From Planctomycetota bacterium (lineage in GTDB: Bacteria > Planctomycetota > Phycisphaerae > UBA1845), in NCBI GenBank assembly GCA_024275565.1, contig JAJRYY010000225.1, positions 1-35,869 on the forward strand: a DNA stretch of 35,869 nt, in the 5' to 3' direction. Below are positions 1 through 14,741 of this stretch, in pieces. Position numbers and translations under genes: made by a program. The notes beneath the pieces are model-generated. The model saw nothing but the letters and a program-made list of their open reading frames with translations. It did no database searches and was not told where the DNA came from. Numbering within the stretch: position 1 is the first letter of the stretch; every line of letters starts with the position of its first letter.

Positions 1-1479
1 CCGCAACTGGGGTCAGCCCATTGGGCGCGGTATCAGATCGTCGGGCTAATTGCCTGCGTGTCAGCTTCGATCATTCTGACGCTCCTGTCGTGGCGGCTGC
101 GTCCTCGTACCCATCGCTTGTGGTTTCCGCTGGTGATGCTGCTGAGTGTGATGGTCGGGGTTGTCGGAATCTTCACGGTGGCACCGGGTACGCTGGGTGC
201 AATCCGCTGGGAAATCACGCGGTTTCTGAACCCATCGATCGAAACAACAATCCAGGAGGTGCAACCACTTTTTTCGCTTGATGGCGCGTTTTCAATCGAC
301 CGTGCATGGCGCATGTTCACGACGAGCCTGTTCCTTGTCATACCCGCCATCGCCATGCTCCTCGCTTCGGTGATCCGGGGCGGGCGACCATCGCAGACGC
401 TGTTCCTCATCTGGACGCTGATCGTGTTGATCGCGACGTTGCAGCAAAATCGATATGCCTATTACGCTGCAACCAATGTAGCAATCCTGGCTGCAGCAGT
501 GACAGTCGAGCTGTTGCGATGGATCGGACATCGGCAAGCCCAACGGTGGAAATCGTGGCGAGGACCAGCAGTGTCGATATGTGGCACGCTGGCGTTTCTG
601 GGGCTGATCCTTCCCAATCTCTCACCATCCATTGCGATGGCAGGACGATCGGTCGGGATGCATGACGACTGGTTTTCTGCAATGGCCTGGTTGCGTACGC
701 ATACCCCCGAACCGTTCGGATCACAGGAATACTACAACGGGTTGTATGACGGGATGGCTGGCGATCTGGGCGCGTCGCGTCTGCCCGATTATTCGGTGCT
801 GAGCTGGTGGGATTATGGATACTGGATCATCAACGAAGGGCGTCGCGTACCCAATGCGAACCCCACGCAGGCAGGTGCGGGCGATGTTGCACCCTTCTTC
901 GTCGCCCAGACGGGCATGGAAGCATCGGAGATTGCAGCAAGCCTGGGTGCCCGCTACGTCATTCTGGATTGTCGAATGACCCAGTGGCGCGGGACGCATG
1001 ATACGGAAAACACCGGCAAGCTCGCATCGATCGCAACCTGGGCAGGAATAGATCCCGAGACCCTCTTTGAAACATATTACACCCGCTCCGAAGACGGAAT
1101 ATTGAAACCGGTCGTCGTCTATTACCCCGCATTTTATCGAACCATGTGTGTGCGGATGCTGTTGTTCGGGGGCGGAAAGGTCGTCGCCCGCAACACCACG
1201 GATGTCATCACCTTTGCGATCGAAACGGATGAAAATGGCAGAGAAATGAAGGTGATAGAAAAGGTGGAGCGGTTCGGGTCATATCTTCAGGCGGATCGAT
1301 TTGTGCGGCTGGCGGGGGATCGGTCGCGGCGGATCGCAGGCCTGGACCCATTGGTCACATGCGTGTCGCTGGATCGGCTGACACGGTTTCGCCAGGTATA
1401 TCAATCGCCGACAGTGGTGGCGTCCGGGGGTGGTCGATCAATCTCGTTCGTGCAGATATTTGAGTTCGTGCCCAGGTGA
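1..1479 (+). CDS. STT3/PglB/AglB-like oligosaccharyltransferase, C-terminal part
   Basis: The reading frame is open from base 1, so the gene begins left of the window; the GTG at 58 is only an internal codon. The visible 492 residues contain several hydrophobic segments and then a soluble C-terminal domain. That domain carries SVLSWWDYGYW, which holds WWDYG, the signature of the STT3 family that moves a lipid-linked glycan onto asparagine of secreted proteins. ARYVILD follows about 100 residues later, at a place where family members have a similar strand. The domain faces the periplasm in known members. The frame ends with TGA only 9 bp from the stop of the convergent cytochrome gene, so there is no room for a separate terminator. 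The family call rests mainly on WWDYG and the membrane-plus-soluble layout. The donor glycan and the targets cannot be read from this window. Confidence 0.85.
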   Translation, partial: PQLGSAHWARYQIVGLIACVSASIILTLLSWRLRPRTHRLWFPLVMLLSVMVGVVGIFTVAPGTLGAIRWEITRFLNPSIETTIQEVQPLFSLDGAFSIDRAWRMFTTSLFLVIPAIAMLLASVIRGGRPSQTLFLIWTLIVLIATLQQNRYAYYAATNVAILAAAVTVELLRWIGHRQAQRWKSWRGPAVSICGTLAFLGLILPNLSPSIAMAGRSVGMHDDWFSAMAWLRTHTPEPFGSQEYYNGLYDGMAGDLGASRLPDYSVLSWWDYGYWIINEGRRVPNANPTQAGAGDVAPFFVAQTGMEASEIAASLGARYVILDCRMTQWRGTHDTENTGKLASIATWAGIDPETLFETYYTRSEDGILKPVVVYYPAFYRTMCVRMLLFGGGKVVARNTTDVITFAIETDENGREMKVIEKVERFGSYLQADRFVRLAGDRSRRIAGLDPLVTCVSLDRLTRFRQVYQSPTVVASGGGRSISFVQIFEFVPR

Positions 1480-1488
1480 TCGAGGACG

Positions 1489-3966
1489 TCATCTGGGCGT
1501 TCTGGTGCTGGCATTGCGAAGCGTGGGGGCTGTCAGCAACGTTCGGGAAATCGTCCCGACATGGTAATTGTGACACAGAAGGCAGTTATCGCCTGCCTCG
1601 TCGGGGACGTGGCAGGTGGTGCAGACGGTGCGGTCCATGGGTTGAAAATTGCTTTCAAACGAGGCGTGCGGGTCGGGACTATTGAACGATGCGGCATCGT
1701 TTGCATCCGGGGCGAGTTGATGGCATTGATAGCAGCCATCGTCATCGAGCAGGGCGAAATGCGGGGCATGCGAGAACTGGGTGAAGCGGTGCCGATCCTG
1801 CAAAGGCCGGTATCCGGTCCAGTTTGACAATCGAGTCCCGCCTGGTGTCATGTCAAAGGTGTGGCACTTCCCGCAGGCGCCCGCAGACGTTCTCCGCGAG
1901 AGGGCGTCAAAAAGTAGTCGTGCAGGACCGGTCGGGGAACCGGTCGGGGCATCGGCCAGAACACCGGCGGTCAGGTCAAACCAGGCCTTCAGAAATCGAT
2001 CCGCATGCCCGGTCGGCTTATATCGGAGATGAAAATCAAATGCGTACCAGCCACCGGCTGCGACCCACCGGGAGGGTTCAATCCTCTCTGGCGTACTGAT
2101 TTCCGGTGCGGTATCCACGTCAGCATCACTGGCTGAAGCTTCGTCATCGTCCAGCAGATCGTCATCGTCCAGCAGATCGTCATCGTCGAGCAGATCGTCA
2201 TCGTCGAGCAGATCGTCATCGTCCAGCAGATCGTCATCGTCGAGCAGATCGTCATCCCCTCCAAGAAGATCGTCATCGTCATTGAGCAGTTCATCACCAT
2301 CGCCAAGCAGATCATCATCGCCAGCGAGATCAACGTCATCATCGAGCAGATCGCCGTCATCGAGTAGATCATCATCGAGCAGATCATCGAAATCCTCTGC
2401 CGTTTCGTTCGCATTACCCGGGTGGCCGTCGGAAACGGTCGTTGACGGTGGCAGACCAGGAATCGGCACACGCAAACCTGCAAGGTGTCGAGCGACCTCT
2501 GTGGTCAGGTCGGCGTCCCAACGTTCGATGGCAGACAACACAGTTTCGGAAGCAATCATATGAGTCAGATCAGACCACTGGTCATCGGGCAGACTGCGCC
2601 CAACGACAGACTCGATTCGTGCCCGCAACGCTTCATGGCCACCGAGGTCGAGGTCGTTAAGCAAGGTTTTGACAGACCACGCCAGCCGCTCGACCGCTTC
2701 CAGATCAGCCTCATCCGCATCGCTCAAATCAAGGAGGTCCATCCCGGAAAGGCGTTGCCAATCCGAAACGAAAAAGGGGTCAGACGAAAGCAGGAAGTAC
2801 ATCATGGGCGTCACGCTGCCTTCAGCAAACTCAGGCCAATGTCCAATCGGCACGTCGCGCTCGCGAAGCGTGTCAATGTCCAGACCCGGCATGTTGAGCA
2901 AGGAAAGCGTCTCGCGACGAATGTCAGATGTGTGGCATTCTGCACAGGTCCGATCAAAACTGTTGACGAGCATGTGTTGCCCAGCCGCATCCGCCTGATG
3001 GCAGGTTGTACAGGTATAACGCTCGACCGCACCCAGAACGCCCGATGTCGTGTCGGCAAAGTGCCTGGCGTGAGCGATGTGGTCAAATTGGATGCTCGTC
3101 CGACGCGTGTAAGGATAGCAGGAAAACTCGGGATGCCCCTGAGAGAAGCTTCGGAACTGCATTGCATGACAGGCTTGACACTGCGTACTGCCCATATCGG
3201 CGAGATTGACATCACTTCCGCGATGCTCCTTATGACAGGATGCACAGGCGATGTGCCCGTCAGCGGTTGTAGCGACGTGTGGGACGAGGTTGCCCAGTGA
3301 CAGCGGAAATGGCGCGTCTGATGACATGGCGGATGGCGCACCAGATCGATCTGCGCGAGACGCTGGATCCTGCGAACGTGCAAGGAGTGATTCACCATCC
3401 AGGCCATGCGGCGACAGGGCATTCCCGCCAAGATCATGGCAGCTTAGACATTGATCGCTTTGCTGTGCGTTGGGCGCTGAAGTCGCAACGGCTTCCAGCC
3501 ACGCAAACGGTTCAGTGATGGATGCACCATGGCAGGATTGGCAGGAAGGCTGCAGCGTCCCATGATGCGAGGTGAGCGGGCCGGGCGAGATCAGCCAGGA
3601 CCGCCGCTCAGTCGAGCTTAGTCCCAGAAGGATCGCACCGAACGCGACACAAATACACCACATCGACAGCAATCCCCGCCTGGCGCGAATACTCCGCACC
3701 GGTTGGCATTTCTGAATCGGGCAGCCGCACTGCCCAGCCGGGAGCGGACCCGCATCACATGGCCCTCCAGCGTTTGGCACGCGCGTGCATAACCAGCGAT
3801 CACCCTTGCGGATCGGGACACATTCGGACGTGGCGAGACAGTGACCACGATGGTCCGGACCGATGCGGCAGGGACGCCCCTCGCAGGTGTGCCCGCAAAC
3901 CCATTTCTGCGTCGGACGCTCGTACGCACTGGCGTCGAACGCATAATCCTGCAAACGCCGCATCAC
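1489..3966 (-). CDS. Membrane-anchored decaheme c-type cytochrome with Cys-rich N-terminus and DDDLLD repeat
   Basis: This 825-residue protein has ten CxxCH heme sites: six between residues 142 and about 370 (CQSCH, CLSCH, CASCH, CQACH, CTTCH, CAECH) and four near the C-terminus (CGKCH, CYQCH, CTTCH, CLLCH). There is no cleavable signal. A single hydrophobic segment at about residues 98-116 should leave the first 97 residues in the cytoplasm and the hemes in the periplasm. The cytoplasmic part has ten cysteines in two similar units of the form GxPCxxGPxxxGxC...CxPxR. Residues 526-609 are a D/L-only tandem array that separates the two heme groups. The start is GTG at 3966, overlapping the stop of the upstream cytochrome b fragment, or the ATG one codon later. 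It is the last gene of the electron-transfer island. Function is inferred to be electron transfer between the membrane cytochrome b and a periplasmic partner. It belongs to the loose cytochrome c3/c7-like group, and I know of no named homologue. Confidence 0.85.
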   Translation of the reverse strand: MMRRLQDYAFDASAYERPTQKWVCGHTCEGRPCRIGPDHRGHCLATSECVPIRKGDRWLCTRVPNAGGPCDAGPLPAGQCGCPIQKCQPVRSIRARRGLLSMWCICVAFGAILLGLSSTERRSWLISPGPLTSHHGTLQPSCQSCHGASITEPFAWLEAVATSAPNAQQSDQCLSCHDLGGNALSPHGLDGESLLARSQDPASRADRSGAPSAMSSDAPFPLSLGNLVPHVATTADGHIACASCHKEHRGSDVNLADMGSTQCQACHAMQFRSFSQGHPEFSCYPYTRRTSIQFDHIAHARHFADTTSGVLGAVERYTCTTCHQADAAGQHMLVNSFDRTCAECHTSDIRRETLSLLNMPGLDIDTLRERDVPIGHWPEFAEGSVTPMMYFLLSSDPFFVSDWQRLSGMDLLDLSDADEADLEAVERLAWSVKTLLNDLDLGGHEALRARIESVVGRSLPDDQWSDLTHMIASETVLSAIERWDADLTTEVARHLAGLRVPIPGLPPSTTVSDGHPGNANETAEDFDDLLDDDLLDDGDLLDDDVDLAGDDDLLGDGDELLNDDDDLLGGDDDLLDDDDLLDDDDLLDDDDLLDDDDLLDDDDLLDDDEASASDADVDTAPEISTPERIEPSRWVAAGGWYAFDFHLRYKPTGHADRFLKAWFDLTAGVLADAPTGSPTGPARLLFDALSRRTSAGACGKCHTFDMTPGGTRLSNWTGYRPLQDRHRFTQFSHAPHFALLDDDGCYQCHQLAPDANDAASFNSPDPHASFESNFQPMDRTVCTTCHVPDEAGDNCLLCHNYHVGTISRTLLTAPTLRNASTRTPR
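2141..2392 (-). repeat. 18-bp tandem repeat encoding DDDLLD units
   Basis: On the top strand the unit is close to GTCATCGTCSAGCAGATC. It is nearly perfect from 2141 to about 2260 and more degenerate from 2260 to 2392. It encodes residues 526-609 of the decaheme cytochrome as DDLLDD-type units, with occasional G, E or N. The reading frame is kept throughout. The high identity of the outer copies suggests recent slippage or duplication, and copy number may vary between strains. Confidence 0.9.
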
Positions 3967-4541
3967 CGGATCCCTCCATGAAAGGCGTACACCAGCAGGA
4001 CATGGAAAAACGAAAAAATGAGCAGGCTGTAGGTCGCGGGAATGTGCAGAAACAACCAGTATTTCAGAGCAGCCTGCCCAGCATATTGATAGTCCACATC
4101 ATCCTTAAGCTTGATTAGTTCTGTAATGTCAGCATGGACACAACGCTCGTCATCATTGAGATAGCGGTCCAGAGCAGCGAATTCGCCGAGCAGCGCATGC
4201 CGAGGCCTGTCAGATTCCAGAAGGTGCAGAGCAGTATGCCGGGGCGATTCAAAAAACCGGGCAAGACGCTGCTGGTAGAAATCAGCAAGGGTCGTGGAGG
4301 TGTTTTCCCGCGCAGATTTCAAAATGAGAGATTCGACATCCTCCCGCAGACATCGCAGGATGGTTGGAATACGCTCGAACAGAACTGCTTCTCCGCGACG
4401 CGTCAGGCGCGATGCAAGCCACCGGGAAAGTATCAACCCAGCAACCCCGCTGGCAGCCACAATCAGATACAGCACGAAGAGTACCCATTCCAGCGCACCC
4501 GTAGGAACGCCAAATCGCAGGTGCGACCCGAAAACCACCAT
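3963..4541 (-). CDS. Cytochrome b-like membrane protein, C-terminal part (downstream of in-frame TAG)
   Basis: This 192-residue ORF begins with ATG directly after the TAG that ends the previous ORF, in the same frame. It opens with FGSHLRFGVPTG, a membrane segment with SGVAGLILSR, then a long charged soluble stretch, and ends in a helix with KYWLFLHIP and FFHVLLVYAFHGG. Paired histidines in helices and the SGxxGLxLSR stretch are typical of di-heme cytochrome b-like subunits found with 4Fe-4S and cytochrome c genes. The preceding ORF supplies the missing N-terminal helices, so this is best read as the second part of one roughly 274-residue protein. TAG-ATG adjacency could allow reinitiation and a two-chain protein. 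Alternatively the stop is a mutation or a sequencing error. The GTGA overlap with the decaheme gene points to tight coupling in one operon. Confidence 0.75.
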   Translation of the reverse strand: MVVFGSHLRFGVPTGALEWVLFVLYLIVAASGVAGLILSRWLASRLTRRGEAVLFERIPTILRCLREDVESLILKSARENTSTTLADFYQQRLARFFESPRHTALHLLESDRPRHALLGEFAALDRYLNDDERCVHADITELIKLKDDVDYQYAGQAALKYWLFLHIPATYSLLIFSFFHVLLVYAFHGGIR

Positions 4542-4787
4542 CTAGAACAATCCCAGATACAGGTGGCACTGTAGCCAGGTAGACGCGGACAGCAGCGGGA
4601 TAAAAGGCAATTTTTTCCGCACATTAAACAGCGTCAGAAACAACATCAATACGAGAAGCGTCCAGCCGGAAAGGAAGTTGACATGATACAACGCCACCTT
4701 TCCGAACAGGTGGATCAGCAGAAACAAAGCCGAAACAACCACCACAAATGCAACCCCGACCAAACGTCTTGTAGCGTAGGACATCAT
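4542..4787 (-). CDS. Cytochrome b-like membrane protein, N-terminal part (ends at in-frame TAG)
   Basis: It encodes 81 residues starting MMSYATRRLVG. The ATG at 4787 overlaps the TGA of the upstream cNMP/Fe-S gene by 4 bp (ATGA), so I prefer it to the start at 4904, which lies inside that gene. There are two clear membrane helices (about residues 9-29 and 36-56) and the beginning of a third, WLQCHLYLGLF, which stops at TAG. Read through, that helix continues as MVVFGSH, which places two histidines exactly 14 residues apart in one helix. This is the spacing I recall for b-type heme ligands in this type of subunit. Alone, the 81-residue product would be an incomplete cytochrome. The probable role is quinol oxidation or reduction linked to the Fe-S and multiheme partners (inference). 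Confidence 0.7.
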   Translation of the reverse strand: MMSYATRRLVGVAFVVVVSALFLLIHLFGKVALYHVNFLSGWTLLVLMLFLTLFNVRKKLPFIPLLSASTWLQCHLYLGLF

Positions 4788-6676
4788 CGCTTCAACCACT
4801 CCGCAAGGGTGGGCAGACTGGACATATCGATCCGACGCATCGCATCGTGCGGACAGGCACGCTGGCAGGCAGGACCGCCAGGCTGATCCACGCACAGGTC
4901 GCATTTTGTCGCTTGTTGTATCGGTGTGTTAGAATGTTCGTCCAGAATAAATTGTCCGCTCTTGTCACGAATATCAACCATGCGAATATTGTGATAAGGA
5001 CAATTATTGGCACAAGTGGAGCAACCAATACAGGTCTGATCGTTGATGACCACCTGTCCGTCAAGTTGTTCACGGTGGATCGCTCCCGTCGGACAACCGA
5101 TCATGCAGACCGGGTCCGCACAATGCATACACGCGTTGGCGACCATCAGGTTTCGGTGTTGCAATCCATGACGGATGAAGCGGGGATTGTTGTCATGCGC
5201 ACCGGCACAGGCGCGGACACAGTCGTCGCAACGCGTACAGCGATCGGTATTGATAACCATCGTGGCAGTACCATTGATGAAACGCGTCTCTGTAAGAAAT
5301 TCGAGCAGATCGGCTCCAATATGATCAGCAGGGTCGCGACCGCCGCCCCCAATACCACTGCCTGCGTAGGGTCCAGGCGCTTCGATCGGTTCGGGCAGCA
5401 GATTCTCCGGCAAGGTCGGAAGCACATGTTTTTCCACGACAGACGTGGGGGCAAGCAGAATATCCACATACCCGATCGCGCGCAAGCTGTACTGAAATGG
5501 CACCTGTTCACCCGTCCGCCAGTTGTGTGCGATCTCCTCAAATCCAAACGTCCGACCGCGACCAAGGTAGCTGACCGTCCGATGCCCGTTGCCATACCGC
5601 TGACTCAACCGGGCAAATCCCGCTCGAATGATATACACCCCGTTCGGGTAGTGTCCCTCCTCAGCAATGATCGGTTCGTGCTCAAGGCGAACGGCTGAAC
5701 TCGCTTCCGCTACACTTTTATAAGACGCATACCAGTCGAAATTCCCGAAGGTCTGGAAAATCGTATGGTCCGCAACGTCGCGCGAGGCGCTGTCGTCGAG
5801 ATGGCTGAAAATCGGCGTGGCACGCATCTGAACCTTCAGGCTTCGTTCGCGATACATCCGGTCAATATGCTCACGCAGCGCGTCCGATCGACGTTTGATA
5901 TCCCGAAGACCCTGCCAGCGAATTTCGAGCAGTTCAGCCTCACCTTCAGAAAAAACCGTCGCGGTACGCGGCGTGCGACCCAGCGCGGCAATCTCCCCAA
6001 AGAGATCGCCCTCCTTCGCCTGACCAGAATAAAGCTGAAGCGTTTCGTGCTTGCTCAATATGGAAGCAACATCCTGCAGAAAAACACGCGCGTCAGCAGA
6101 GTCTCCATGACGACGCCCAATACGAGCATCTCCGCCCTGAAGAGAAACCACCGCACGCACCTCAGGATTTGAAGCATTTCGCCAAAGCTGAGACATCGCC
6201 CCGAACAACCCCTTACGCTTCGTGACAGCCCGACCAAGAACCGCAGCAGGTATCTGCGGACTGATGACAATACGCACACGCCCGGAAAGAATGAAAAATG
6301 CAGAGTTACCGTAATCCCCTTCACGAACCACAATGTCGCCGTTCTTCAGCGAGGTGATGCGCGTATCGTTTCGGATGATCTCGCGAAAAGGTACGGAAGA
6401 CGGAAAATGAGACGCGTCAATGTCGCAAAAGGGCCGAATACTCAGAACGCGATCCACATCAACATCCGACATGACACCAAACGGAACATCCCAGCGCCTG
6501 GGACGGGGTGCCCGCTCGCTCGCAGTCCGATCGCTCGTGCGACGCGGACTGCGACGACGATTGTTCTTCCGCCGCTCATCCCTCGGACGACGCGACGCAT
6601 GGTCAGAGTCCCGTCGGCGATCCCTCTTGCGGCGATCGCCACCCCTGCGCCCATCCTGTCCAGATCCGGTTGCCAT
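4784..6676 (-). CDS. cNMP-binding domain protein fused to a four-cluster ferredoxin
   Basis: This is a 630-residue soluble protein. Residues 1-60 are very rich in Arg and Asp/Ser and look disordered. A first cyclic-nucleotide-binding fold at about 100-255 carries FGEIAALGRTPRTATV, close to the phosphate-binding cassette of the family. A second, more degenerate fold lies at about 315-415. The C-terminal 155 residues hold four [4Fe-4S] motifs (CTRCDDCVRAC, CMHCADPVCMIGCP, CIGCSTCANNCP, and CDLC with CQRACP), as in DmsB/NrfC-type electron-transfer subunits. No signal peptide is present, so it should be cytoplasmic and may pass electrons to the membrane cytochrome b encoded next to it. The fusion suggests that electron flow is gated by a nucleotide ligand (inference). 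The ATG at 6676 follows the c554 stop by 3 bp, and the TGA overlaps the next gene by 4 bp. Confidence 0.88.
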   Translation of the reverse strand: MATGSGQDGRRGGDRRKRDRRRDSDHASRRPRDERRKNNRRRSPRRTSDRTASERAPRPRRWDVPFGVMSDVDVDRVLSIRPFCDIDASHFPSSVPFREIIRNDTRITSLKNGDIVVREGDYGNSAFFILSGRVRIVISPQIPAAVLGRAVTKRKGLFGAMSQLWRNASNPEVRAVVSLQGGDARIGRRHGDSADARVFLQDVASILSKHETLQLYSGQAKEGDLFGEIAALGRTPRTATVFSEGEAELLEIRWQGLRDIKRRSDALREHIDRMYRERSLKVQMRATPIFSHLDDSASRDVADHTIFQTFGNFDWYASYKSVAEASSAVRLEHEPIIAEEGHYPNGVYIIRAGFARLSQRYGNGHRTVSYLGRGRTFGFEEIAHNWRTGEQVPFQYSLRAIGYVDILLAPTSVVEKHVLPTLPENLLPEPIEAPGPYAGSGIGGGGRDPADHIGADLLEFLTETRFINGTATMVINTDRCTRCDDCVRACAGAHDNNPRFIRHGLQHRNLMVANACMHCADPVCMIGCPTGAIHREQLDGQVVINDQTCIGCSTCANNCPYHNIRMVDIRDKSGQFILDEHSNTPIQQATKCDLCVDQPGGPACQRACPHDAMRRIDMSSLPTLAEWLKR

Positions 6677-6679
6677 AAA

Positions 6680-7705
6680 TTAAGGCTTGGCCATCCCCTT
6701 GAAATCACCCTCACCCGGAAGCAGCGCATCGACAGCAGCAAACGCACCACCGTCATGGTTCGTCGCAAAACGCTGGGCAGCCGCCGATATCTTCTCAGCA
6801 GCCACCAGCAGTTGATCCTTGGCCTTCAGCGAAATACGCAATTTACCATCGGCCTTACGCGGCAACGCATCCAGAATCTCCTTGATCTCATCCACAGCAG
6901 CAACCGCATACAATGCCTCAACGTCAACCGCCGCCTTCTTCACACGCCGCGCCATAGCCTTCGCATACAACTTCCCCGAAGTCGCCTTCACAACACCACG
7001 CAACCCAAACTCCAGATCCAGCATCCGACCCACCATGTACAAAATACGCTTGCGGGCCTGAGTCGCAGGTCGATTGACCGCACCCTCAATGTAATTGTGA
7101 CGAACCTCACCCTGAGACCACGACAACAACTCAAAGCGACTCCCAGCCGGGTGACCACCCTTGTTCACCAGATCCTCAAACGGAACCGTATGACACCCAT
7201 AACAATTGGCAGCCACATTGTAGATGTTCGACGGTCGAATCATACCCGCCGACGCGCACGATTCCCATCGCGACTCACGATGCGACTCAGATTCAGTTTC
7301 CTTCGTCAAGCCCTTACCATAATCCTGATGAACATCGACCCACGCACGCGCAGGACCATGACAGCTTTCACAGGAAACACCCGAGACAGCCTTGACCTTA
7401 CCACCATCCGATTGACGTGAATAATGACACGTCATACAAAGACGCTCCGTCTTCATCCGCTTGATACCAAGCTTGTCAGCAATCTCGCGGGCCTTGTCAC
7501 GCTTGTGCATCTCGTAAAAAGTCTTGTAATGCCTCGTATCTTTCCACGTCGCATGTTCGGATTTGTGACACTCACCACAACGCTCCGCACCAACCACGTT
7601 CTCAGGATCATAAGCCCAGGCACCACCGGCAAAGAACAACGCGAACACCCAGCCAAACAAAAACGCCAGCTTCACCGTCATTATGCTTCGTTGATTCATC
7701 GTCAT
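6680..7705 (-). CDS. Exported tetraheme cytochrome c, c554-like
   Basis: This protein of about 341 residues has an N-terminal signal peptide: a hydrophobic core LAFLFGWVFALFF, then GGAWA as a likely cleavage site. It has four CxxCH sites (CGECH, CMTCH, CESCH, CYGCH). The first is followed by KSEHATWKDTRHYKTFYEMH, the C..CH...W..S.H arrangement typical of the cytochrome c554/multiheme family. The last third is Lys/Ala-rich, helical and free of heme sites. It should be a periplasmic electron carrier. I chose ATG 7705 because a GGTGA sequence lies a few bases upstream; GTG 7714 and ATGs at 7699 and 7681 are also possible and keep the signal peptide. A 17-bp tandem repeat lies just upstream. Codons here end mostly in G or T, unlike glutamate dehydrogenase on the same strand. 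Confidence 0.85.
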   Translation of the reverse strand: MTMNQRSIMTVKLAFLFGWVFALFFAGGAWAYDPENVVGAERCGECHKSEHATWKDTRHYKTFYEMHKRDKAREIADKLGIKRMKTERLCMTCHYSRQSDGGKVKAVSGVSCESCHGPARAWVDVHQDYGKGLTKETESESHRESRWESCASAGMIRPSNIYNVAANCYGCHTVPFEDLVNKGGHPAGSRFELLSWSQGEVRHNYIEGAVNRPATQARKRILYMVGRMLDLEFGLRGVVKATSGKLYAKAMARRVKKAAVDVEALYAVAAVDEIKEILDALPRKADGKLRISLKAKDQLLVAAEKISAAAQRFATNHDGGAFAAVDALLPGEGDFKGMAKP

Positions 7706-7741
7706 TGCGATCACCGTTCAAAAGAGTACACGTTCTCAGTC

Positions 7742-7809
7742 TTCCGCAACTGCCCCAATGTCGCAACTGCCTCAACAGCACGACTACTTCAACAACACGA
7801 CTGCTTCAA
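7742..7809. repeat. Four tandem 17-bp repeats between the reductase and c554 genes
   Basis: Four abutting 17-bp units lie at 7742-7758, 7759-7775, 7776-7792 and 7793-7809. On the transcribed strand they all start with TTG and share the form TTGRRGYAGTYGYG. The first two units resemble each other most, as do the last two. The array fills most of the 117 bp between the reductase stop and the c554 start. It could be a binding array, an RNA structure that sets c554 expression, or the product of neutral tandem duplication. Confidence 0.85.
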
Positions 7810-7822
7810 AAATCTGTCGATA

Positions 7823-9100
7823 CTACGCGTCGATTTCAACATCCCCTTCCGGCGCACAAATACACGCCAGACACGTTCCCGGTTCCGGCTTCTCGCCCGG
7901 CTCATTCGCATACGTCACCTTGCCCGCCTTGACAGCCACAAGGCACGTCCCGCAATTCCCCGCCCGACAACCCGAATCCATCGCAACGCCCTGCTCTTCC
8001 GCAAAATCCAGAAGCGTCCCGGAAGACGGCGTCCAGTCGCAAGTCCTGCCGGATTTGGCAAACGTCACCCGCATCGTCACCGCATGCGATGACGATGCAT
8101 CGGACGAATCCACTGCGGGCTTCTTCTTCACACTCGCAGGCCCGAACGCTTCAAAATGAACACTTTCATCAGGAACGCCCCAAGCCCGCAACCCATCTGT
8201 CAGCGCGGTCATCATCGGCGGCGGCCCACAGATAAAAAATGCATAATTGCTGGACGGTAGTACACGCTTGAACAGATCCACACTCACACGCTCAGCAAAG
8301 TCATAATCCTCGCCCTGAACATCGGCGCAACCAGGATCGCTGTAGCAAACCTGAACATGAATGTTCTCGAATTCACGATCAAGACGCTCAAGGTGTTCAC
8401 GCATGATGTGCTCATCACCATTGCGCACGCCATAAAAAAACCACACCTCACGCGTCTCACCACGATCCACGATCGCGTTCACCATGCTCAGCATCGGCGT
8501 CAGGCCGATCCCACCACCAATCAGCACCACAGGCTGCTGCCTCGTCATGTCCAGATAAAAATGACCCGTAGGCGCTTTGACATCGAGGATATCACCCTCC
8601 TCAAGTCGATCATGAAAAAACGTCGAGGAAAGACCGGACGGAGCATCGGGAGCATCCCGAGGAGGAAGCGCCTTCTTAATGCTCACGCGGTAATGATCCT
8701 CCCGGAAACAGTCCGACAGCGAATAACAACGGGTGACCGATTTCGACTGCCCCGGAATGCGGAGCAGAAACGTCAGATATTGACCCGGATGAAACGCTGC
8801 CAGCTTCTTCCCGTCGTGAGGAACGAGGTAAAAGGAACATATACCCCCACCCTCCATCACCTTCCGGGAAATCTCAAACTTACGCACACCATGCCAAGTC
8901 GCCTCAGAACAAAGCTGAACACGCCGCCGCTCAGACGTGGCAGCCGCAACACGCTCACCCAGCAACGCAAGCGACAACCGCCGCTGACCACCCTCATACA
9001 CAAACCGACGCCCCGATGACGCCACCAGAAGCAGCACCTGCAGGACAGCCGCTACCAGAATGACCGCCCCACCCCATTGCAAAATTGTGGTTGTGGACAA
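7823..9100 (-). CDS. Membrane-tethered FAD/NAD(P)H oxidoreductase with C-terminal plant-type [2Fe-2S] domain
   Basis: This 425-residue protein starts with one hydrophobic helix (about residues 9-28). An FAD-binding beta-barrel follows, with RCYSLSD at 124-130, then an NAD(P)-binding domain with GGGIGLTPMLSM and the terminal CGPPPMM. The C-terminal ferredoxin domain has C378-x4-C383-x2-C386 and a fourth ligand in GTCLAC near 410. This order (reductase, then ferredoxin) resembles Hcr-type and related NADH oxidoreductases and is the reverse of NqrF. It should take electrons from NAD(P)H and pass them to a membrane or ferredoxin partner. The start is a TTG at 9100 with AAGGG upstream; no better start precedes the helix. 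It lies between the barrel protein and c554 in the same transcription direction. Confidence 0.88.
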   Translation of the reverse strand: MSTTTILQWGGAVILVAAVLQVLLLVASSGRRFVYEGGQRRLSLALLGERVAAATSERRRVQLCSEATWHGVRKFEISRKVMEGGGICSFYLVPHDGKKLAAFHPGQYLTFLLRIPGQSKSVTRCYSLSDCFREDHYRVSIKKALPPRDAPDAPSGLSSTFFHDRLEEGDILDVKAPTGHFYLDMTRQQPVVLIGGGIGLTPMLSMVNAIVDRGETREVWFFYGVRNGDEHIMREHLERLDREFENIHVQVCYSDPGCADVQGEDYDFAERVSVDLFKRVLPSSNYAFFICGPPPMMTALTDGLRAWGVPDESVHFEAFGPASVKKKPAVDSSDASSSHAVTMRVTFAKSGRTCDWTPSSGTLLDFAEEQGVAMDSGCRAGNCGTCLVAVKAGKVTYANEPGEKPEPGTCLACICAPEGDVEIDA

Positions 9101-9147
9101 ATCCGTGACCCTTCACACGCACCCATAGCACACAATAAACACGCCGC

Positions 9148-9217
9148 GTTCCGCGCGCACTCCGGGCGGAACAGCACGATAAGTATAGAACTATCCTTCT
9201 ACCGGCCCGAATCGGGC
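9148..9217 (-). other. Two inverted repeats between the barrel-protein and reductase genes
   Basis: GCCCG/CGGGC (9205-9217, 3-base loop) overlaps the stop of the barrel-protein gene. GTTCCGC/GCGGAAC (9148-9172, 11-base loop) lies further on. Neither is followed by a T-run on the transcribed strand. They are more likely weak attenuators or 3'-end stabilisers than strong terminators. Confidence 0.4.
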
Positions 9218-10680
9218 TAAAACTTGAACAGGAATTCGATGCGTCCGCCATACATCGCATTCGTCTGCTCGCTGGCGCCTGCAAAAGCATCCAGTTGCAG
9301 GATCATATGCTGACCAAAAGCATGCTGATACCGCGCTGCAACGGCAGCCTGACCCGTATTGCTGTTGTCCGTATCCTTCCGACCGCCGATCTCCACGATC
9401 AACTGGCTCCGAAACCCAAACAGCCTCTGATATCCGATGCTGAGACCGTACGCATCGCTGGCCTGATTGCTCAGGGCAGACCCATAACGCCCGAGACCGA
9501 CAGCCGAATAGAGAATACCGGTACGCCCCAGCGGTCCGCCGGTGGCAGGGTCGCGGGCAGCCGACGAATATCGGTCGATCGCGTAGAACCCGTCGACATA
9601 CACAATGTCATCCGTGTGATGGGGTGTCCACGACACTTCGCCAAAGAACAGAATACCACGCGTGTTCTGATCCGATTCGCCCGTGGTGGGAAACGATCCG
9701 TTGACGCGGAAGGCTGTATTATAATGTCCGATACGCTGCACCGCACTGACGCCGGCATAAAACGCGTCACCCGTACCACCGGAATGCACATAGACAAAAT
9801 CCACGTCGATCGTACTGATCGGCAGGTCTGCCTGCGTGAACAATCCCCACAACTGAGCACGTTCATCATCGACATTGTTGCCCTGGAAGTTGTTGCCGCG
9901 ATGGACCTCGTTCCACGCATAAAACGTGGTCATCCGCAGATTGGAGGTTCCCGAAGGCAGCATCGTGTTTCGCACAAATCCGACGCCATCCAGGAAGTCA
10001 TTGATCATGATTCCTTCCTGAATGAAAATTGGCTGACGTCCGACACTGAACCCGATGTCCAGTCCCAGCGAATCGTCAAGGTCGAGATTCGGGAAGATTT
10101 CACCGAATTCCCCCTCAAAGAACAACGTCTGAATTTCACCGTTGAATTCCGTCTGCCAGTCGTTGTCGCCCTTGGGCTGGAGGTTGAAACTCGTGAAGCG
10201 ACCGTCCTGGTCCAGTGGACGAATCCCCACCAGCAACCGCTCCGTTCCGGTCAGGCGTAGCTCGAAGAACAGGTCGAGACGGTTGGTCCACTCGGAAAAC
10301 TTCGTATTCCCGTCGTCAAAGGATTGCAGTGCAGTGCGATACGTTCCGTAGACCAGCAGCGACGGTTGCCACACAGCGCCGGTCGGCAGTATAAAGCCCG
10401 GATCAATATTGCCCGTTCCCAGAAAGGGGGCACCCAGCTCGAGCAGCGGTTTGGGGCGTTTGGGAACCAGGTCGATCGCAAGCGGAATCGGCACGTCGGA
10501 AAAACGACTCGCACTCTTCTCCATATCGTCCTTGTGCTTATCGTTCCTGTGCTTGTCGCCATCGGAATCACCTCCGGCCACCGCCGATGTGACCATCCCA
10601 AGGAGTGTCAGCCCGACCACGAGCGCAATCCCCGAAGCGTTCCGTTTTTCCGTCTGGCGTCTGCCGTTTTTCCTCAGCAT
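9217..10680 (-). CDS. Outer-membrane beta-barrel (porin-like) protein
   Basis: This 487-residue protein has a signal peptide (basic start, then GIALVVGLTLLGMVTSAVAG). A short charged linker rich in D, K and H follows, then many alternating hydrophobic/polar strands with aromatic girdle residues. It ends in GGRIEFLFKF, with a C-terminal phenylalanine as expected for outer-membrane barrels recognised by BamA. It has no heme sites. Its place between a pentaheme cytochrome and the reductase/c554 genes suggests a role in moving ions, substrate or electrons across the outer membrane. A porin-cytochrome conduit is one possibility (inference). The ATG at 10680 has AGGAG about 12 bases upstream. Three 18-bp direct repeats lie in the leader. 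I cannot assign a named porin family. Confidence 0.8.
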   Translation of the reverse strand: MLRKNGRRQTEKRNASGIALVVGLTLLGMVTSAVAGGDSDGDKHRNDKHKDDMEKSASRFSDVPIPLAIDLVPKRPKPLLELGAPFLGTGNIDPGFILPTGAVWQPSLLVYGTYRTALQSFDDGNTKFSEWTNRLDLFFELRLTGTERLLVGIRPLDQDGRFTSFNLQPKGDNDWQTEFNGEIQTLFFEGEFGEIFPNLDLDDSLGLDIGFSVGRQPIFIQEGIMINDFLDGVGFVRNTMLPSGTSNLRMTTFYAWNEVHRGNNFQGNNVDDERAQLWGLFTQADLPISTIDVDFVYVHSGGTGDAFYAGVSAVQRIGHYNTAFRVNGSFPTTGESDQNTRGILFFGEVSWTPHHTDDIVYVDGFYAIDRYSSAARDPATGGPLGRTGILYSAVGLGRYGSALSNQASDAYGLSIGYQRLFGFRSQLIVEIGGRKDTDNSNTGQAAVAARYQHAFGQHMILQLDAFAGASEQTNAMYGGRIEFLFKF

Positions 10681-10695
10681 TGGCTTACGTTTCTC

Positions 10696-10751
10696 CTGAA
10701 CTTACCGTCCTGAGATCTTCTGAACTTACCATCCTGAACTTATCGTCCTGA
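10696..10751. repeat. Three 18-bp direct repeats in the leader of the barrel-protein gene
   Basis: CTGAACTTACCGTCCTGA (10696-10713), CTGAACTTACCATCCTGA (10720-10737) and CTGAACTTATCGTCCTGA (10734-10751) differ by one base each from the first. The second and third overlap by four bases. They fill the leader just upstream of the ribosome-binding site. On the RNA strand each copy carries AGGAYGR. They may be operator or RNA-binding sites, or a simple duplication. Confidence 0.85.
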
Positions 10752-10802
10752 GACGCCTGATGGATGCGACACAGGCGTGTGGACATGGAACGTCAACTCG
10801 TC

Positions 10803-12773
10803 TTACCAGAGTAAAATATGCCCGTTGCGGACCGCGTCCGCCACCTCGCGCGGGCTCATGAAATAGTCAAAACCGACGAGCTTGATCGCATCAATCAGGT
10901 TGACTGGGACCATGCCTGCAAACAGCTCGAGTTTGGCGGTGTAGGGTCCGACACCCGTGAGCTTTGAGGCTGACACGTGATAGGAAGCCCAGCGGTGATC
11001 GCCTGGGACGATGCTCTTTTTGTGCTTTCGCACCACGCGGGGATTTCCGATCAGGACCGTCGCAAACGTTGAGGGTCTCACGAAGGGCAACGGGTCGAGT
11101 GAGTAGTTGATTGGCAGCACCTGCTCCCGCTCGCCGCCTCGTGCATTTCGCGTCAGGAACCGGGATTGGAGAGTGAACAACTGCTTGTCCAGTGGTAGTT
11201 CACCATTGTGGACATATTTTGAGTGGAGGTCTCGCAGGTCTCCGTTCGGGTCGAGGTCTCCCGATTCCATCACGGTATTTCCCTGCCCGTCTTTCACGAC
11301 CACCCTCAGATAGATCAACCGTTCGCCATCGAAGCCCGTGGGGACGTTGTGTCCGTCCGTGCCGTTGATGACCTTGATTTTGAAGCGGAGGCCTTTCGCG
11401 TTTGCCTGCTGGATCACGACGTCTTCGATCTTGTATCCTACCTTCAAAATCTGTTCTCGCTGGGCTGCGATTTCGTTCAGGAGCGTCAGATTATCTTCGA
11501 TGATTGCCCGGGCTTCATATCTGTCGTCCACCGATCTCCATGCGGTTGGGAATTCGTGGTCTCCGGAGACCTTGTCTTCAAATGCGTCGGTCCCCCATCC
11601 GTCCTCATGTTGAAAATCGAGCCATTCTCTGATGGACGCGAGTGCGGCTGCCTTGTCGTTGTGGGGGAAAATGCCTGGGTGGATGATTGAATAATCCGGT
11701 CCGGCGAACATGTGGTTTGTTCGCTTGCGTGGTTTTGTGGGAACGCCGCTGACGATGGCAGCTGGTGCGATGTCATATCCTGATGCTATGCCGGGGATTT
11801 TTCCCATGTGGCAATCCTGACAGGTTTCGCCTCGCTGTGCGGATGGAGACTGTTTGTACTCGCTGAAAGCTTCCTCAAGGCGGAATCCGTTCAGGAGGTT
11901 CACATCGTGGCAGATTGCGCAGAATGCGGATGTATCGATCTGGGCGAGGTCGATGGCTTTTCCGTGTATCTCGACGCCGCCGCGCTGGTCCCTGCTTGTG
12001 ACGACCCGGTATTCCGGGCTGGCGATGACGCGTTGCAATTCTGCATTTCCTGTTGGGCCGTAGACCGGGTCGAAGATGTCGCCTTCGGGGATTGCGAGTC
12101 GTCCGCTGACTTTTCCGTATGGGCGGTCGAGTCGGTGACATGCGATGCAGGTGATACCCTCGCGTGAGGTTGGGTGTCGATCCATGTTGCTGCCGAAGAT
12201 TGGTTCGCCCATGTTCATGCCGACGGGGTTGTGGCATCTGATGCAGAAGTCGCCATTTGATCCGCTTGTGAAGAGGATCACTGCTCCCTGCATGGCATTG
12301 AAGATGGGACTCATCTGGGCGTATGCGTGGGCGGAGACGGACCACTCGCGGAAATGGTCCGGGTGGCAGTTGCGGCAGGTGAAGGCTGAGGGGTAGCGGT
12401 TTTCGGCGATCAGCTCTCCGTGTGCCTGGGCTGCTGCTGTGGCGACTTTCTGGTCTTCCGAGACTTCCGCCGTATCGTCGGCGGTACTTTTTCCGATGAG
12501 ATCATCGTCGCCGTCGAGCAGGTCGTCGTCATCTCCCAGGAGATCGTCGTCATCTCCGAGGAGGTCGTCATCATCTCCGAGCAGGTCGTCATCGTCGGCG
12601 GGTGGTGGATCCTGTGCTGGCTGACCTGGGTCAGACGTCATGCTGGATTCCGCCGATGTGTCTGGTGGTGCCGCGTGCGTTGGCCAGACGACCAGCAGCG
12701 CGACCGTTGCCATGGACAATGTCAATATAGATAGCAAGCGCTTCTGCGCCCCCACGGCGTATCGAACGGACAT
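10803..12773 (-). CDS. Exported pentaheme cytochrome c with DDDDLLG repeats
   Basis: This 656-residue protein starts at ATG 12773, preceded by GAGAGG at good spacing. The open frame extends upstream to 13172, but that part crosses an intergenic palindrome and has no signal peptide, so I exclude it. A signal peptide (residues 1-34, ending PTHA) is followed by an acidic array at residues 60-93 (DDDDLLG units). Five CxxCH sites come next (CRNCH at 133-137, CIRCH, CIACH, CAICH, CQDCH). The first is followed by HFREWSVSAHAYAQMSPIF, typical of the c554/multiheme family. The last 270 residues have no heme sites and look beta-rich, with an LIYLRVVVKDGQG strand. It should be periplasmic or surface-exposed. 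It lies 122 bp upstream of the barrel-protein gene and shares its acidic motif with the decaheme cytochrome 7 kb away. Confidence 0.85.
   Translation of the reverse strand: MSVRYAVGAQKRLLSILTLSMATVALLVVWPTHAAPPDTSAESSMTSDPGQPAQDPPPADDDDLLGDDDDLLGDDDDLLGDDDDLLDGDDDLIGKSTADDTAEVSEDQKVATAAAQAHGELIAENRYPSAFTCRNCHPDHFREWSVSAHAYAQMSPIFNAMQGAVILFTSGSNGDFCIRCHNPVGMNMGEPIFGSNMDRHPTSREGITCIACHRLDRPYGKVSGRLAIPEGDIFDPVYGPTGNAELQRVIASPEYRVVTSRDQRGGVEIHGKAIDLAQIDTSAFCAICHDVNLLNGFRLEEAFSEYKQSPSAQRGETCQDCHMGKIPGIASGYDIAPAAIVSGVPTKPRKRTNHMFAGPDYSIIHPGIFPHNDKAAALASIREWLDFQHEDGWGTDAFEDKVSGDHEFPTAWRSVDDRYEARAIIEDNLTLLNEIAAQREQILKVGYKIEDVVIQQANAKGLRFKIKVINGTDGHNVPTGFDGERLIYLRVVVKDGQGNTVMESGDLDPNGDLRDLHSKYVHNGELPLDKQLFTLQSRFLTRNARGGEREQVLPINYSLDPLPFVRPSTFATVLIGNPRVVRKHKKSIVPGDHRWASYHVSASKLTGVGPYTAKLELFAGMVPVNLIDAIKLVGFDYFMSPREVADAVRNGHILLW
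12492..12596 (-). repeat. 21-bp tandem repeat encoding DDDDLLG units
   Basis: About five 21-bp units encode DDDDLLG, DDDDLLG, DDDDLLG, DDDDLLDG and DDDLIG. They lie directly after the signal peptide and a Pro-rich linker of the pentaheme cytochrome. The unit length differs from the 18-bp array in the decaheme gene, but the encoded D-D-D-L-L core is the same. Confidence 0.9.
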
Positions 12774-13445: not shown

Positions 13446-14741
13446 TTAAGCTTTTGCGAAGTAGGTGCTTGTTCCCTGGGATGCGATTGCTTCTCCTATG
13501 CGCGTTAGTGCGTGGGTGTAGGCTGCTGTTCGCATGGAGATTTTGTGTTGCTCCATGATGGCGTAGACGGCGCCGAATTCGCGTGTCATGATTGTTTCGA
13601 GTTTCTGGTGTACTTCCTCGACGGGCCAATAGTATCCTGCCTTGTTCTGTACCCACTCGAAATAGCTGACGGTGACGCCGCCTGCGTTTGCTAATATGTC
13701 CGGGATGACCAGTTTGCCTGCTGCTGCGAGGATCTCGTCGGCTGTGCTTGTGGTCGGACCGTTTGCGATTTCGCACAACACGCCTGCTTTGATTCGTGAA
13801 ACGTTTTCTTCGGTGATCTGGTTTTCCATTGCGGCGGGTACGAGTATGTCGACGTCCAGTTCGAGCAGTTCTGCGTTTGTGATGGTGTCGGCTGGTACTG
13901 CCTCGCAGACTGAGCCTTCGCAGTAGACTGCTTTGAGCTGTCGGGTTTCATTTTTTGCGTGTATCAAGGATGGGACGTCGAATCCTGTTGCGTTGTAGAT
14001 TCCTCCGCGAGAATCGCTGACAGCGACGATTTTGTATCCGTCCTTGTGCATGAGGCGTGCGAAGTGCTGTCCGGCGTTTCCGAAGCCCTGTATTGCTACC
14101 GTGATTTCCGATGGTTTCCACTGTCTATGCTTTTCGAGCTGCTTGATGCAGTAGTAGGCACCTCTGCCTGTTGCGTCGTCTCGTCCGAGGCTTCCGCCGA
14201 GCGGGATTGGTTTTCCGGTGATGACGGCGGGTGTGTGCTGTCGTTTGATTTTTGAGTATTCGTCCATCATCCATCCCATGATCATTGCGTTTGTGTAGAC
14301 GTCGGGTGCTGGGATGTCTGTTTCGGGGCCGATGAAATCGGCGATCTGCTGGATGAATCCTCGGCTGAGGCGTTCGAGTTCGAGTTTGGAGAGTTCTTTG
14401 GGATTTACGACGATTCCGCCCTTTCCGCCTCCGTATGGGATGCCTACTACTGCGCATTTGCAGGTCATCCAGAATGCGAGCGCTTTGACCTCTTCGATGT
14501 TTACGTCTGGATGGTATCGTATGCCGCCCTTTGTTGGTCCGCGTGTATCGTTGTATCGGACACGCGCGCCCTGGAATACTCTGAGCGAGCCATCGTCCAT
14601 TCGCACGGGGATCGAGACCTGGAAGACTGCTTTTGGATATTTGAGTTTTTCGAGTGCTTCGGGATCGATGTTTGCGTATTCGAATGCCTTATCCAACCGC
14701 TTGATTGCGTCTTCAAAAATGCTGCCGTTCGATTCGGACAT
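13446..14741 (-). CDS. gdhA: Glutamate dehydrogenase (Glu/Leu/Phe/Val family)
   Basis: This 431-residue protein has the usual length of hexameric glutamate dehydrogenase. The N-terminal substrate domain has GGIRYHPDV and the catalytic-lysine motif PYGGGKGGI. The C-terminal Rossmann domain begins around [17 protein letters not shown]. It converts 2-oxoglutarate and ammonium to glutamate or the reverse. The residue that decides NAD or NADP cannot be judged safely here. The ATG at 14741 has GGGAGG upstream at good spacing. It is a single gene with no obvious operon partner. Codons end mostly in C or A, clearly different from the c554 and reductase genes on the same strand. Confidence 0.95.

What the first reader, a model, noticed from the sequence alone, without database searches (positions are those of the whole stretch)
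1489..12773. Candidate undescribed electron-transfer island from NAD(P)H to multiheme cytochromes and an outer-membrane barrel
Seven same-strand functions lie together: pentaheme cytochrome, barrel protein, FAD/[2Fe-2S] reductase, tetraheme c554-like protein, cNMP-binding protein with four [4Fe-4S] sites, cytochrome b, and membrane decaheme protein. Several overlap by 4 bp or abut. Seen: 19 CxxCH sites, the cofactor motifs and the gene order. Known: DmsB-like Fe-S subunits and b-type cytochromes pass electrons between ferredoxin/quinone pools and periplasmic hemes. Inferred: one chain from NAD(P)H across the inner membrane and perhaps out through the barrel, gated by a cyclic nucleotide. I know of no named complex with this set.
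Basis: partly seen in the sequence, partly recalled or inferred. Interest (0 to 1): 0.75.

Follow-up and report, generated by a model that had tools for sequence, protein, structure and literature searches.

The report
Cyclic-nucleotide-gated electron-export gene cluster
A likely planctomycete carries a seven-gene electron-transfer cluster whose iron-sulfur core protein is found in at least eleven bacterial phyla, and it is predicted to carry electrons from NAD(P)H across the inner membrane to cytochromes near the outer membrane, likely under control of a cyclic nucleotide; in this genome the membrane cytochrome b gene is interrupted by a stop codon.

Summary
The seven genes and 19 CxxCH sites are real, and the set is a conserved module. 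Among 80 loci from named genomes, the cytochrome b gene (F) lies directly after the cNMP-Fe-S gene (E) in 78 of 78 with enough sequence, and decaheme G follows in 65 of 67. E occurs in 11 phyla.

A is related to pentaheme cytochrome c552. B is modelled as an Occ/AlgE-like barrel. F has four invariant histidines, enough for two hemes b. G has a Cys-rich segment before its membrane helix. E keeps the cNMP-binding cassette.

Three related genomes lack E. All three lack G's Cys-rich segment, and the two that also lack reductase C have lost a cytosol-side heme ligand of F. Cyclase genes touch the module in 4 of 25 loci, against 0.11 expected.

Best reading: NAD(P)H to C to F to G to D to A/B, with E as a cNMP-controlled Fe-S subunit. 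Direction, gating and exit through B are inferred. In this genome F is broken by an in-frame TAG. Nine answered paper searches showed no account of the module.

The parts
10803..12773 (-). A: pentaheme cytochrome c (5 CxxCH), start chosen at a signal-peptide-like N-terminus; the ORF runs to 13172
9217..10680 (-). B: outer-membrane beta-barrel, Occ/OprD/AlgE-like
7823..9100 (-). C: FAD/NAD(P)/[2Fe-2S] reductase with N-terminal hydrophobic helix
   Evidence: Pfam, hydropathy
6680..7714 (-). D: tetraheme c554-like cytochrome (4 CxxCH)
   Evidence: PF13435 above cut-off; c554 structure match E 1.3e-15
4784..6676 (-). E: cyclic-nucleotide-binding protein with four 4-Cys Fe-S sites
5954..6001 (-). 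E: conserved cNMP phosphate-binding cassette (FGE...R.PR.AT)
   Evidence: conservation over 81 sequences
4853..5239 (-). E: four 4-Cys sites (residues 480-608)
3963..4787 (-). F: diheme cytochrome b, interrupted reading frame
   Evidence: four invariant His in 24 of 24 aligned relatives
4542..4544 (-). in-frame TAG inside F, between His75 and His89
1489..3966 (-). G: membrane-anchored decaheme cytochrome (10 CxxCH)
3706..3897 (-). G: conserved Cys-rich N-terminal segment, probably cytosolic
   Evidence: motif in 74 of 75 G proteins
3619..3675 (-). G: single predicted membrane helix
   Evidence: hydropathy

Best explanation
The cluster is predicted to encode a trans-envelope electron-export module in which reductase C likely takes electrons from NAD(P)H, diheme cytochrome b F would carry them across the inner membrane, decaheme G and tetraheme D would pass them through the periplasm, pentaheme A with barrel B would hand them to an acceptor at the outer membrane, and Fe-S protein E would admit electrons according to a cyclic nucleotide. 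F's histidines fit two hemes b stacked across the membrane: His75/His248 on the cytosolic side and His89/His262 on the periplasmic side (inferred from spacing and the positive-inside rule). C and E would both feed the cytosol-side heme, and E would dock on the Cys-rich N-terminal segment of G. Shown: the parts, their conservation, and the correlated losses. Inferred: docking, direction, gating and the terminal acceptor.
For: F directly after E in 78 of 78 loci and G after E in 65 of 67 (the two misses, L048 and L050, do have G by profile). In 25 loci with 8 kb on both sides: C 24, D 23, F 25, G 25. Four invariant His in F. Three genomes without E (L134, L162, L163) also lack G's Cys-rich segment, and no E is found elsewhere in them, while two relatives with the standard locus have it. 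His75 is Gln only in the 2 of 92 scorable F proteins whose loci lack both C and E. cNMP cassette conserved. Cyclase gene at the module edge in 4 of 25 loci, 0.11 expected, Poisson P 5e-6. A-B pair in the same 6 of 198 class genomes.
Against: No biochemistry. In this genome F is broken by a TAG. B resembles solute channels. L162 keeps C and F without E, and A-B-D-F-G exist without C and E, so neither E nor NAD(P)H input is obligatory for the periplasmic part. L134 and L163 are close kin, so their losses may be one event. 21 of 25 full-flank loci have no adjacent cyclase, and that test was made after the pattern was seen. Divergent sets L137-L143 have E' and F' without the Cys-rich segment.
Confidence: 0.5

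Rival explanations
1. Periplasmic reductase: the inner part works as above, but A is the site where a small solute, brought in through channel B, is reduced in the periplasm. No electrons leave the cell.
For: B aligns with Occ/OprD/AlgE solute channels. A has many invariant residues beyond its heme motifs. A and B travel as a pair.
Against: A's only clear solved relative, c552, has no clear functional role (PMC11976967, passages). In L039 and L040 A-B is replaced by another barrel plus a large decaheme protein, which fits a cytochrome-porin unit better.
Confidence: 0.3
2. Inward flow: the module takes electrons from a periplasmic or extracellular donor and reduces NAD(P)+ in the cytosol.
For: Every part is reversible in principle; the sequence carries no direction. 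D resembles c554, which in ammonia oxidisers receives electrons (recalled).
Against: C is closest to reductases that spend NAD(P)H, such as flavohemoprotein and oxygenase reductases.
Confidence: 0.2
3. Quinol-linked complex: F-G mainly oxidises membrane quinol, and C and E are regulatory or auxiliary.
For: Sets without C and E exist and lose the cytosol-side ligand His75, so another electron source must serve them.
Against: C is in 24 of 25 full-flank loci chosen by E, and His75 is kept wherever C or E is present. No quinone site was identified or tested.
Confidence: 0.2
4. For this genome only: the module is a decaying copy, inactivated by the stop codon in F (compatible with any reading above for intact relatives).
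For: TAG at 4544-4542. Five of five other strong F matches in the class survey have no stop, and 52 of 57 other database relatives are 268-278 aa, that is unsplit.
Against: E and B are open and so are the other genes as listed. One base changed by an assembly error in a draft of 236 contigs would look the same.
Confidence: 0.35

Closest known systems
CbcL/MtrH/MtoC inner-membrane cytochromes
   Same: Multiheme c part plus b-type heme ligands in the membrane, linking the inner membrane to periplasmic cytochromes (PMC6295460, section 10 read).
   Different: Those are single fused proteins, most with six membrane helices and three conserved His. Here b (F) and c (G) are separate, F has four invariant His, and C and E are added.
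ImcH
   Same: Inner-membrane multiheme cytochrome with an N-terminal anchor (PMC6295460, section 11 read).
   Different: ImcH homologues have three membrane motifs (two exceptions with one) and an atypical CX3CH. G has one helix in the window protein and no CX3CH in 74 of 77.
Verrucomicrobial porin-multiheme cytochrome clusters (He et al. 2017, PMC5615132, section 12 read)
   Same: Barrel plus multiheme genes in related organisms; L073 has a 9-heme, an 8-heme and a c7 barrel gene beside C-D-E-F-G.
   Different: The paper leaves the inner-membrane step unnamed ('ET in IM') and does not mention cyclic nucleotides. I could not see its figure, so overlap with our genes is not confirmed.
Thermochromatium tepidum pentaheme cytochrome c552 family (for A)
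   Different: A is longer, with an N-terminal acidic stretch in some members, and is paired with B.
DmsB-type four-cluster Fe-S subunits (for E)
   Same: Four 4-Cys sites and a neighbouring membrane cytochrome.
   Different: E carries cNMP-binding domains, no hydrophobic helix was found, and it scores far below family cut-offs.
MtrCAB-type porin-cytochrome conduits
   Same: A multiheme cytochrome coded next to an outer-membrane barrel.
   Different: B's best rows are Occ/OprD/AlgE channels. G has only a weak profile match to 6r2q chain A, which I recall to be MtrA.

Membership tests
CbcL/MtrH/MtoC | multiheme c domain and b-type membrane domain in one polypeptide | tested here: not met
   F and G are separate ORFs in the window and in relatives.
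ImcH | CX3CH motif next to the membrane part | tested here: not met
   0 in 74 of 77 G proteins, 1 in 3 of 77.
ImcH | three N-terminal membrane motifs | tested here: not met
   one helix in the window protein by hydropathy; other members not scanned.
NqrF (for C) | curated NCBIfam nqrF score | tested here: not met
   108.3 bits, cut-off 295. [2Fe-2S] is C-terminal here; in NqrF it is N-terminal (recalled).
DmsB-type Fe-S subunit (for E) | four [4Fe-4S] sites | tested here: met
   16 Cys in four groups; clusters themselves not shown.
DmsB-type Fe-S subunit (for E) | curated TIGR02951 score | tested here: not met
   58.4 bits, cut-off 214.1.
Cyclic-nucleotide-binding proteins (for E) | cNMP_binding domain with phosphate-binding cassette | tested here: met
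   PF00027 84.7 bits, cut-off 27.5; cassette conserved over 81 sequences. The motif's role is recalled; binding not tested.
T. tepidum cytochrome c552 family (for A) | five hemes and common fold | tested here: met
ExtKL NCBIfam model (for A) | curated NF040886 score | tested here: not met
   31.7 bits, cut-off 250.
Cytochrome c554 (for D) | PF13435 gathering score | tested here: met
   51.9 bits, cut-off 20.8. The Nitrosomonas equivalog NF043010 is not reached: 50.2 of 400.
MtrB-type conduit barrel (for B) | MtrB fold | tested here: inconclusive
   best rows are Occ/OprD/AlgE; a family that is not listed is not excluded.
Porin-cytochrome conduit (for A-B) | cytochrome inserted in the barrel | not testable with these tools
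   no complex prediction was available.

The most novel reading that the evidence does not exclude
A cyclic-nucleotide-gated electron valve: a quinone-independent inner-membrane complex (C-E-F-G) that opens or closes the flow of NAD(P)H electrons to the cell envelope by direct binding of cAMP or cGMP to an Fe-S subunit, spread over eleven or more phyla and plugged into exchangeable outer-membrane cytochrome units.
Probability: 0.33. Interest if true: 0.88.

Novelty: new variant of a known kind. Interest (0 to 1): 0.7.

Why it matters
Three inner-membrane families are named as feeding bacterial extracellular electron transfer, all of them quinol oxidases or quinone reductases (PMC6295460, abstract). 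This would be another entry point, fed by NAD(P)H. It would also put a second messenger directly on an electron-transfer subunit rather than on transcription. E relatives are abundant: 4113 proteins at E <= 1e-30 among the 7996 candidates scored. It is a candidate for the unnamed inner-membrane step of verrucomicrobial porin-cytochrome clusters (PMC5615132). The natural losses make the roles of C, E and the Cys-rich segment directly testable.

Tried and rejected
MtrAB-like conduit as the default reading of A-B: not adopted, because B aligns best with Occ/OprD/AlgE channels. MtrB was not in the rows shown; that excludes nothing.

Recent wide horizontal transfer as the reason for the patchy spread (6 of 198 class genomes): not favoured. 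In the E tree (quick method) all phyla together need 11 changes where 10 is the least possible. Phyla follow submitters' titles, and 4 rows have no group.

CbcL or ImcH membership of G: rejected. NqrF membership of C: rejected.

Structured RNA in the window: none at gathering threshold. Promoter-like sites were as frequent as in shuffles, 6 against 6.1, so co-transcription rests on spacing and synteny only.

Phylum-wide survey: two attempts gave no answer, so 198 genomes of the class were surveyed.

B against solved sequences: only designed TPR proteins matched, all within profile positions 19-135; I treat these as spurious. F: the two window fragments match no Pfam family; of 24 relatives 12 match DUF4405 weakly, best E 4.2e-5; one solved chain at E 0.14, taken as chance.

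Cyclase count: L025 has a CHASE2-family match (733 bits) but no cyclase domain by my model, and L056 a weak one (33 bits); neither was counted. L036 was counted by its coordinates, since the frames overlap; the script's printed gap for it is an artefact.

Effect of the stop codon on the organism: could not be decided without reads.

Literature: nine answered paper searches. Those joining cyclic nucleotide with multiheme or decaheme terms gave nothing on this gene set; the one paper holding both cNMP-binding and decaheme (PMC4999443, passages) uses them apart. Passages of PMC6344600 and PMC10732223 describe other gene sets. Many subscription papers are not held.

Full report
What is there. The minus strand from 12773 to 1489 holds seven genes in one direction, here called A to G. 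They carry 19 CxxCH sites: 5 in A, 4 in D and 10 in G. Shuffling the residues of the same proteins gave at most 1 in 1000 trials, and 16 of 16 other window ORFs examined have none. E and F, and F and G, overlap by 4 bp; D and E are 3 bp apart. C has FAD, NAD and [2Fe-2S] domains after an N-terminal hydrophobic helix. E has cyclic-nucleotide domains and 16 cysteines in four groups.

The cytochrome b gene F runs from 4787 to 3963 but has an in-frame TAG at 4544-4542, between two conserved histidines. Of the six strong F matches in the class survey only this one has a stop. Of 57 other database relatives of the fragment, 52 are 268-278 aa long and five are shorter, 167-262 aa. L080 also has F in two overlapping frames. 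The genome is a draft of 236 contigs, so mutation and assembly error cannot be told apart.

Conservation. A scan of named genomes with E found 184 relatives; the best 80 loci were kept. Profile searches on these gave F directly downstream of E in 78 of 78 loci with at least 600 bp of sequence there, and G in 65 of 67 with at least 2.2 kb; the two misses (L048, L050) do have G by profile. In the 25 loci with at least 8 kb on both sides, C occurs in 24, D in 23, F and G in 25, A and B in 12. Over all 80 loci the numbers are C 63, D 72, F 79, G 76, A 33, B 32, contig ends included. The loci were picked by E and the family models were built from the same loci, so these counts say what goes with E, not how common the module is. 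In the window's class 6 of 198 genomes hold E, 6 hold A and 6 hold B; A and B are in the same six, and five of these hold E, the own genome included. E rows fall in 11 phyla and follow phylum closely in a quick tree.

The outer parts are an exchangeable pair. Of the 13 full-flank loci without adjacent A-B, two (L039, L040) have another barrel-like plus decaheme pair, c7 and c13 (c7 is called a barrel from its look and a weak Alginate_exp match), and no A elsewhere. Of the other 11, 7 genomes carry A elsewhere and 4 do not. In seven A copies whose surroundings were fetched, from five of those genomes, B lies beside A in 6. The genome behind L136 has two A-B pairs on another contig.

How the inner part is built. 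F has four invariant histidines in 24 of 24 aligned relatives, in two pairs 14 residues apart, the usual layout of two hemes b across a membrane (established knowledge). The charged segments around its helices suggest that His75 and His248 lie on the cytosolic side; this is an inference. G has a Cys-rich segment before its helix in 74 of 75 proteins by motif. E keeps the FGE...R.PR.AT cassette; its role in cyclic-nucleotide binding is recalled.

Natural losses. Three genomes of one family carry sets without E. L134 and L163 are A-B-D-F-G and also lack C; L162 is A-B-C-D-F-G. Whole-genome searches found no E elsewhere in them, only generic ferredoxin matches, while two relatives of the same family with A do have E. 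In all three G lacks the Cys-rich motif (read from the N-termini printed; upstream cysteines in L134 and L162 lie in the part that overlaps F). In the two without C, F's His75 is Gln; with C present it is His. His75 is kept in 90 of 92 scorable F proteins. The simplest reading is that C and E deliver electrons to the cytosol-side heme, and that E sits on G's N-terminal segment. L134 and L163 are close kin, so this may be one event. Seven divergent sets (L137-L143) have E' and F' with all four histidines; six of them have a G' and none shows the Cys-rich segment, so that segment belongs to the window's type.

Link to cyclic nucleotides. Class III cyclase genes lie at the edge of the module in L005, L018, L036 and L080, 4 of the 25 full-flank loci. 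From the number of PF00211 matches and genome sizes 0.11 were expected, Poisson P 5e-6. L014, L143 and L144 add three more outside that sample; in L143 the cyclase lies between G and a D-like gene. The test was made after the pattern was seen, and 21 of 25 loci have none. The window itself holds no cyclase by this model; its genome has one PF00211 match, whose place was not listed.

Mechanism. The best-supported reading is NAD(P)H to C, to the cytosol-side heme of F, to the periplasm-side heme, to G, D and then A beside B, with E as a second, cyclic-nucleotide-controlled Fe-S input. The parts and their co-variation are shown. Direction, gating, docking and the final acceptor are inferred. Inward flow, a periplasmic reductase and quinol entry remain open; the stated odds overlap, since some readings share the same inner part.

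Comparison. [quoted passage not shown] F and G meet neither the CbcL nor the ImcH definition. He et al. 2017 (PMC5615132, section 12 read) described verrucomicrobial porin-multiheme clusters with an unnamed inner-membrane step; L073 has a 9-heme c13, an 8-heme protein and c7 beside C-D-E-F-G. From the listings of nine answered queries I found no account of the E-F-G set; that is no proof of absence from print.

Noticed in passing
window 4542-4544 (-); also L080 11690-12384: In-frame TAG inside the cytochrome b gene of the window; in L080 the same gene is also in two overlapping frames.
   Followed up: partly
window 13446-14741 (-); L043, L065, L067: A glutamate-dehydrogenase-like gene (name recalled from the sequence, not scanned) lies next to the module in the window and in three other loci of different phyla. 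No chance estimate was made.
   Followed up: partly
A about 12400-12600 and G about 2000-2300: Both A and G of the window carry long acidic DDLL-type repeats. Three or more such repeats occur in 5 of 34 A and 3 of 77 G proteins; the window and L010 have them in both.
   Followed up: partly
P0085, P0090, P0105, P0112: Four of the 120 listed E relatives also carry an FHA domain (PF00498), a second kind of signal input.
   Followed up: no
L137-L143: A divergent kind of the module, with E', F', G' (10 hemes in one gene or 4+6 in two) and c13 or c7 genes in some, occurs in other genomes of the class.
   Followed up: partly
L163 2145-4079: The A gene of this E-less set is itself split by a TAG.
   Followed up: no
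L011, L013, L017, L022, L027, L033: In marine alphaproteobacteria much the same housekeeping genes flank the module; in L013 an A-B pair sits among them, in the others it does not.
   Followed up: no
window 58-1479 (+): An AglB-core protein (PF22627), possibly an oligosaccharyltransferase, ends 9 bp from the end of G.
   Followed up: no
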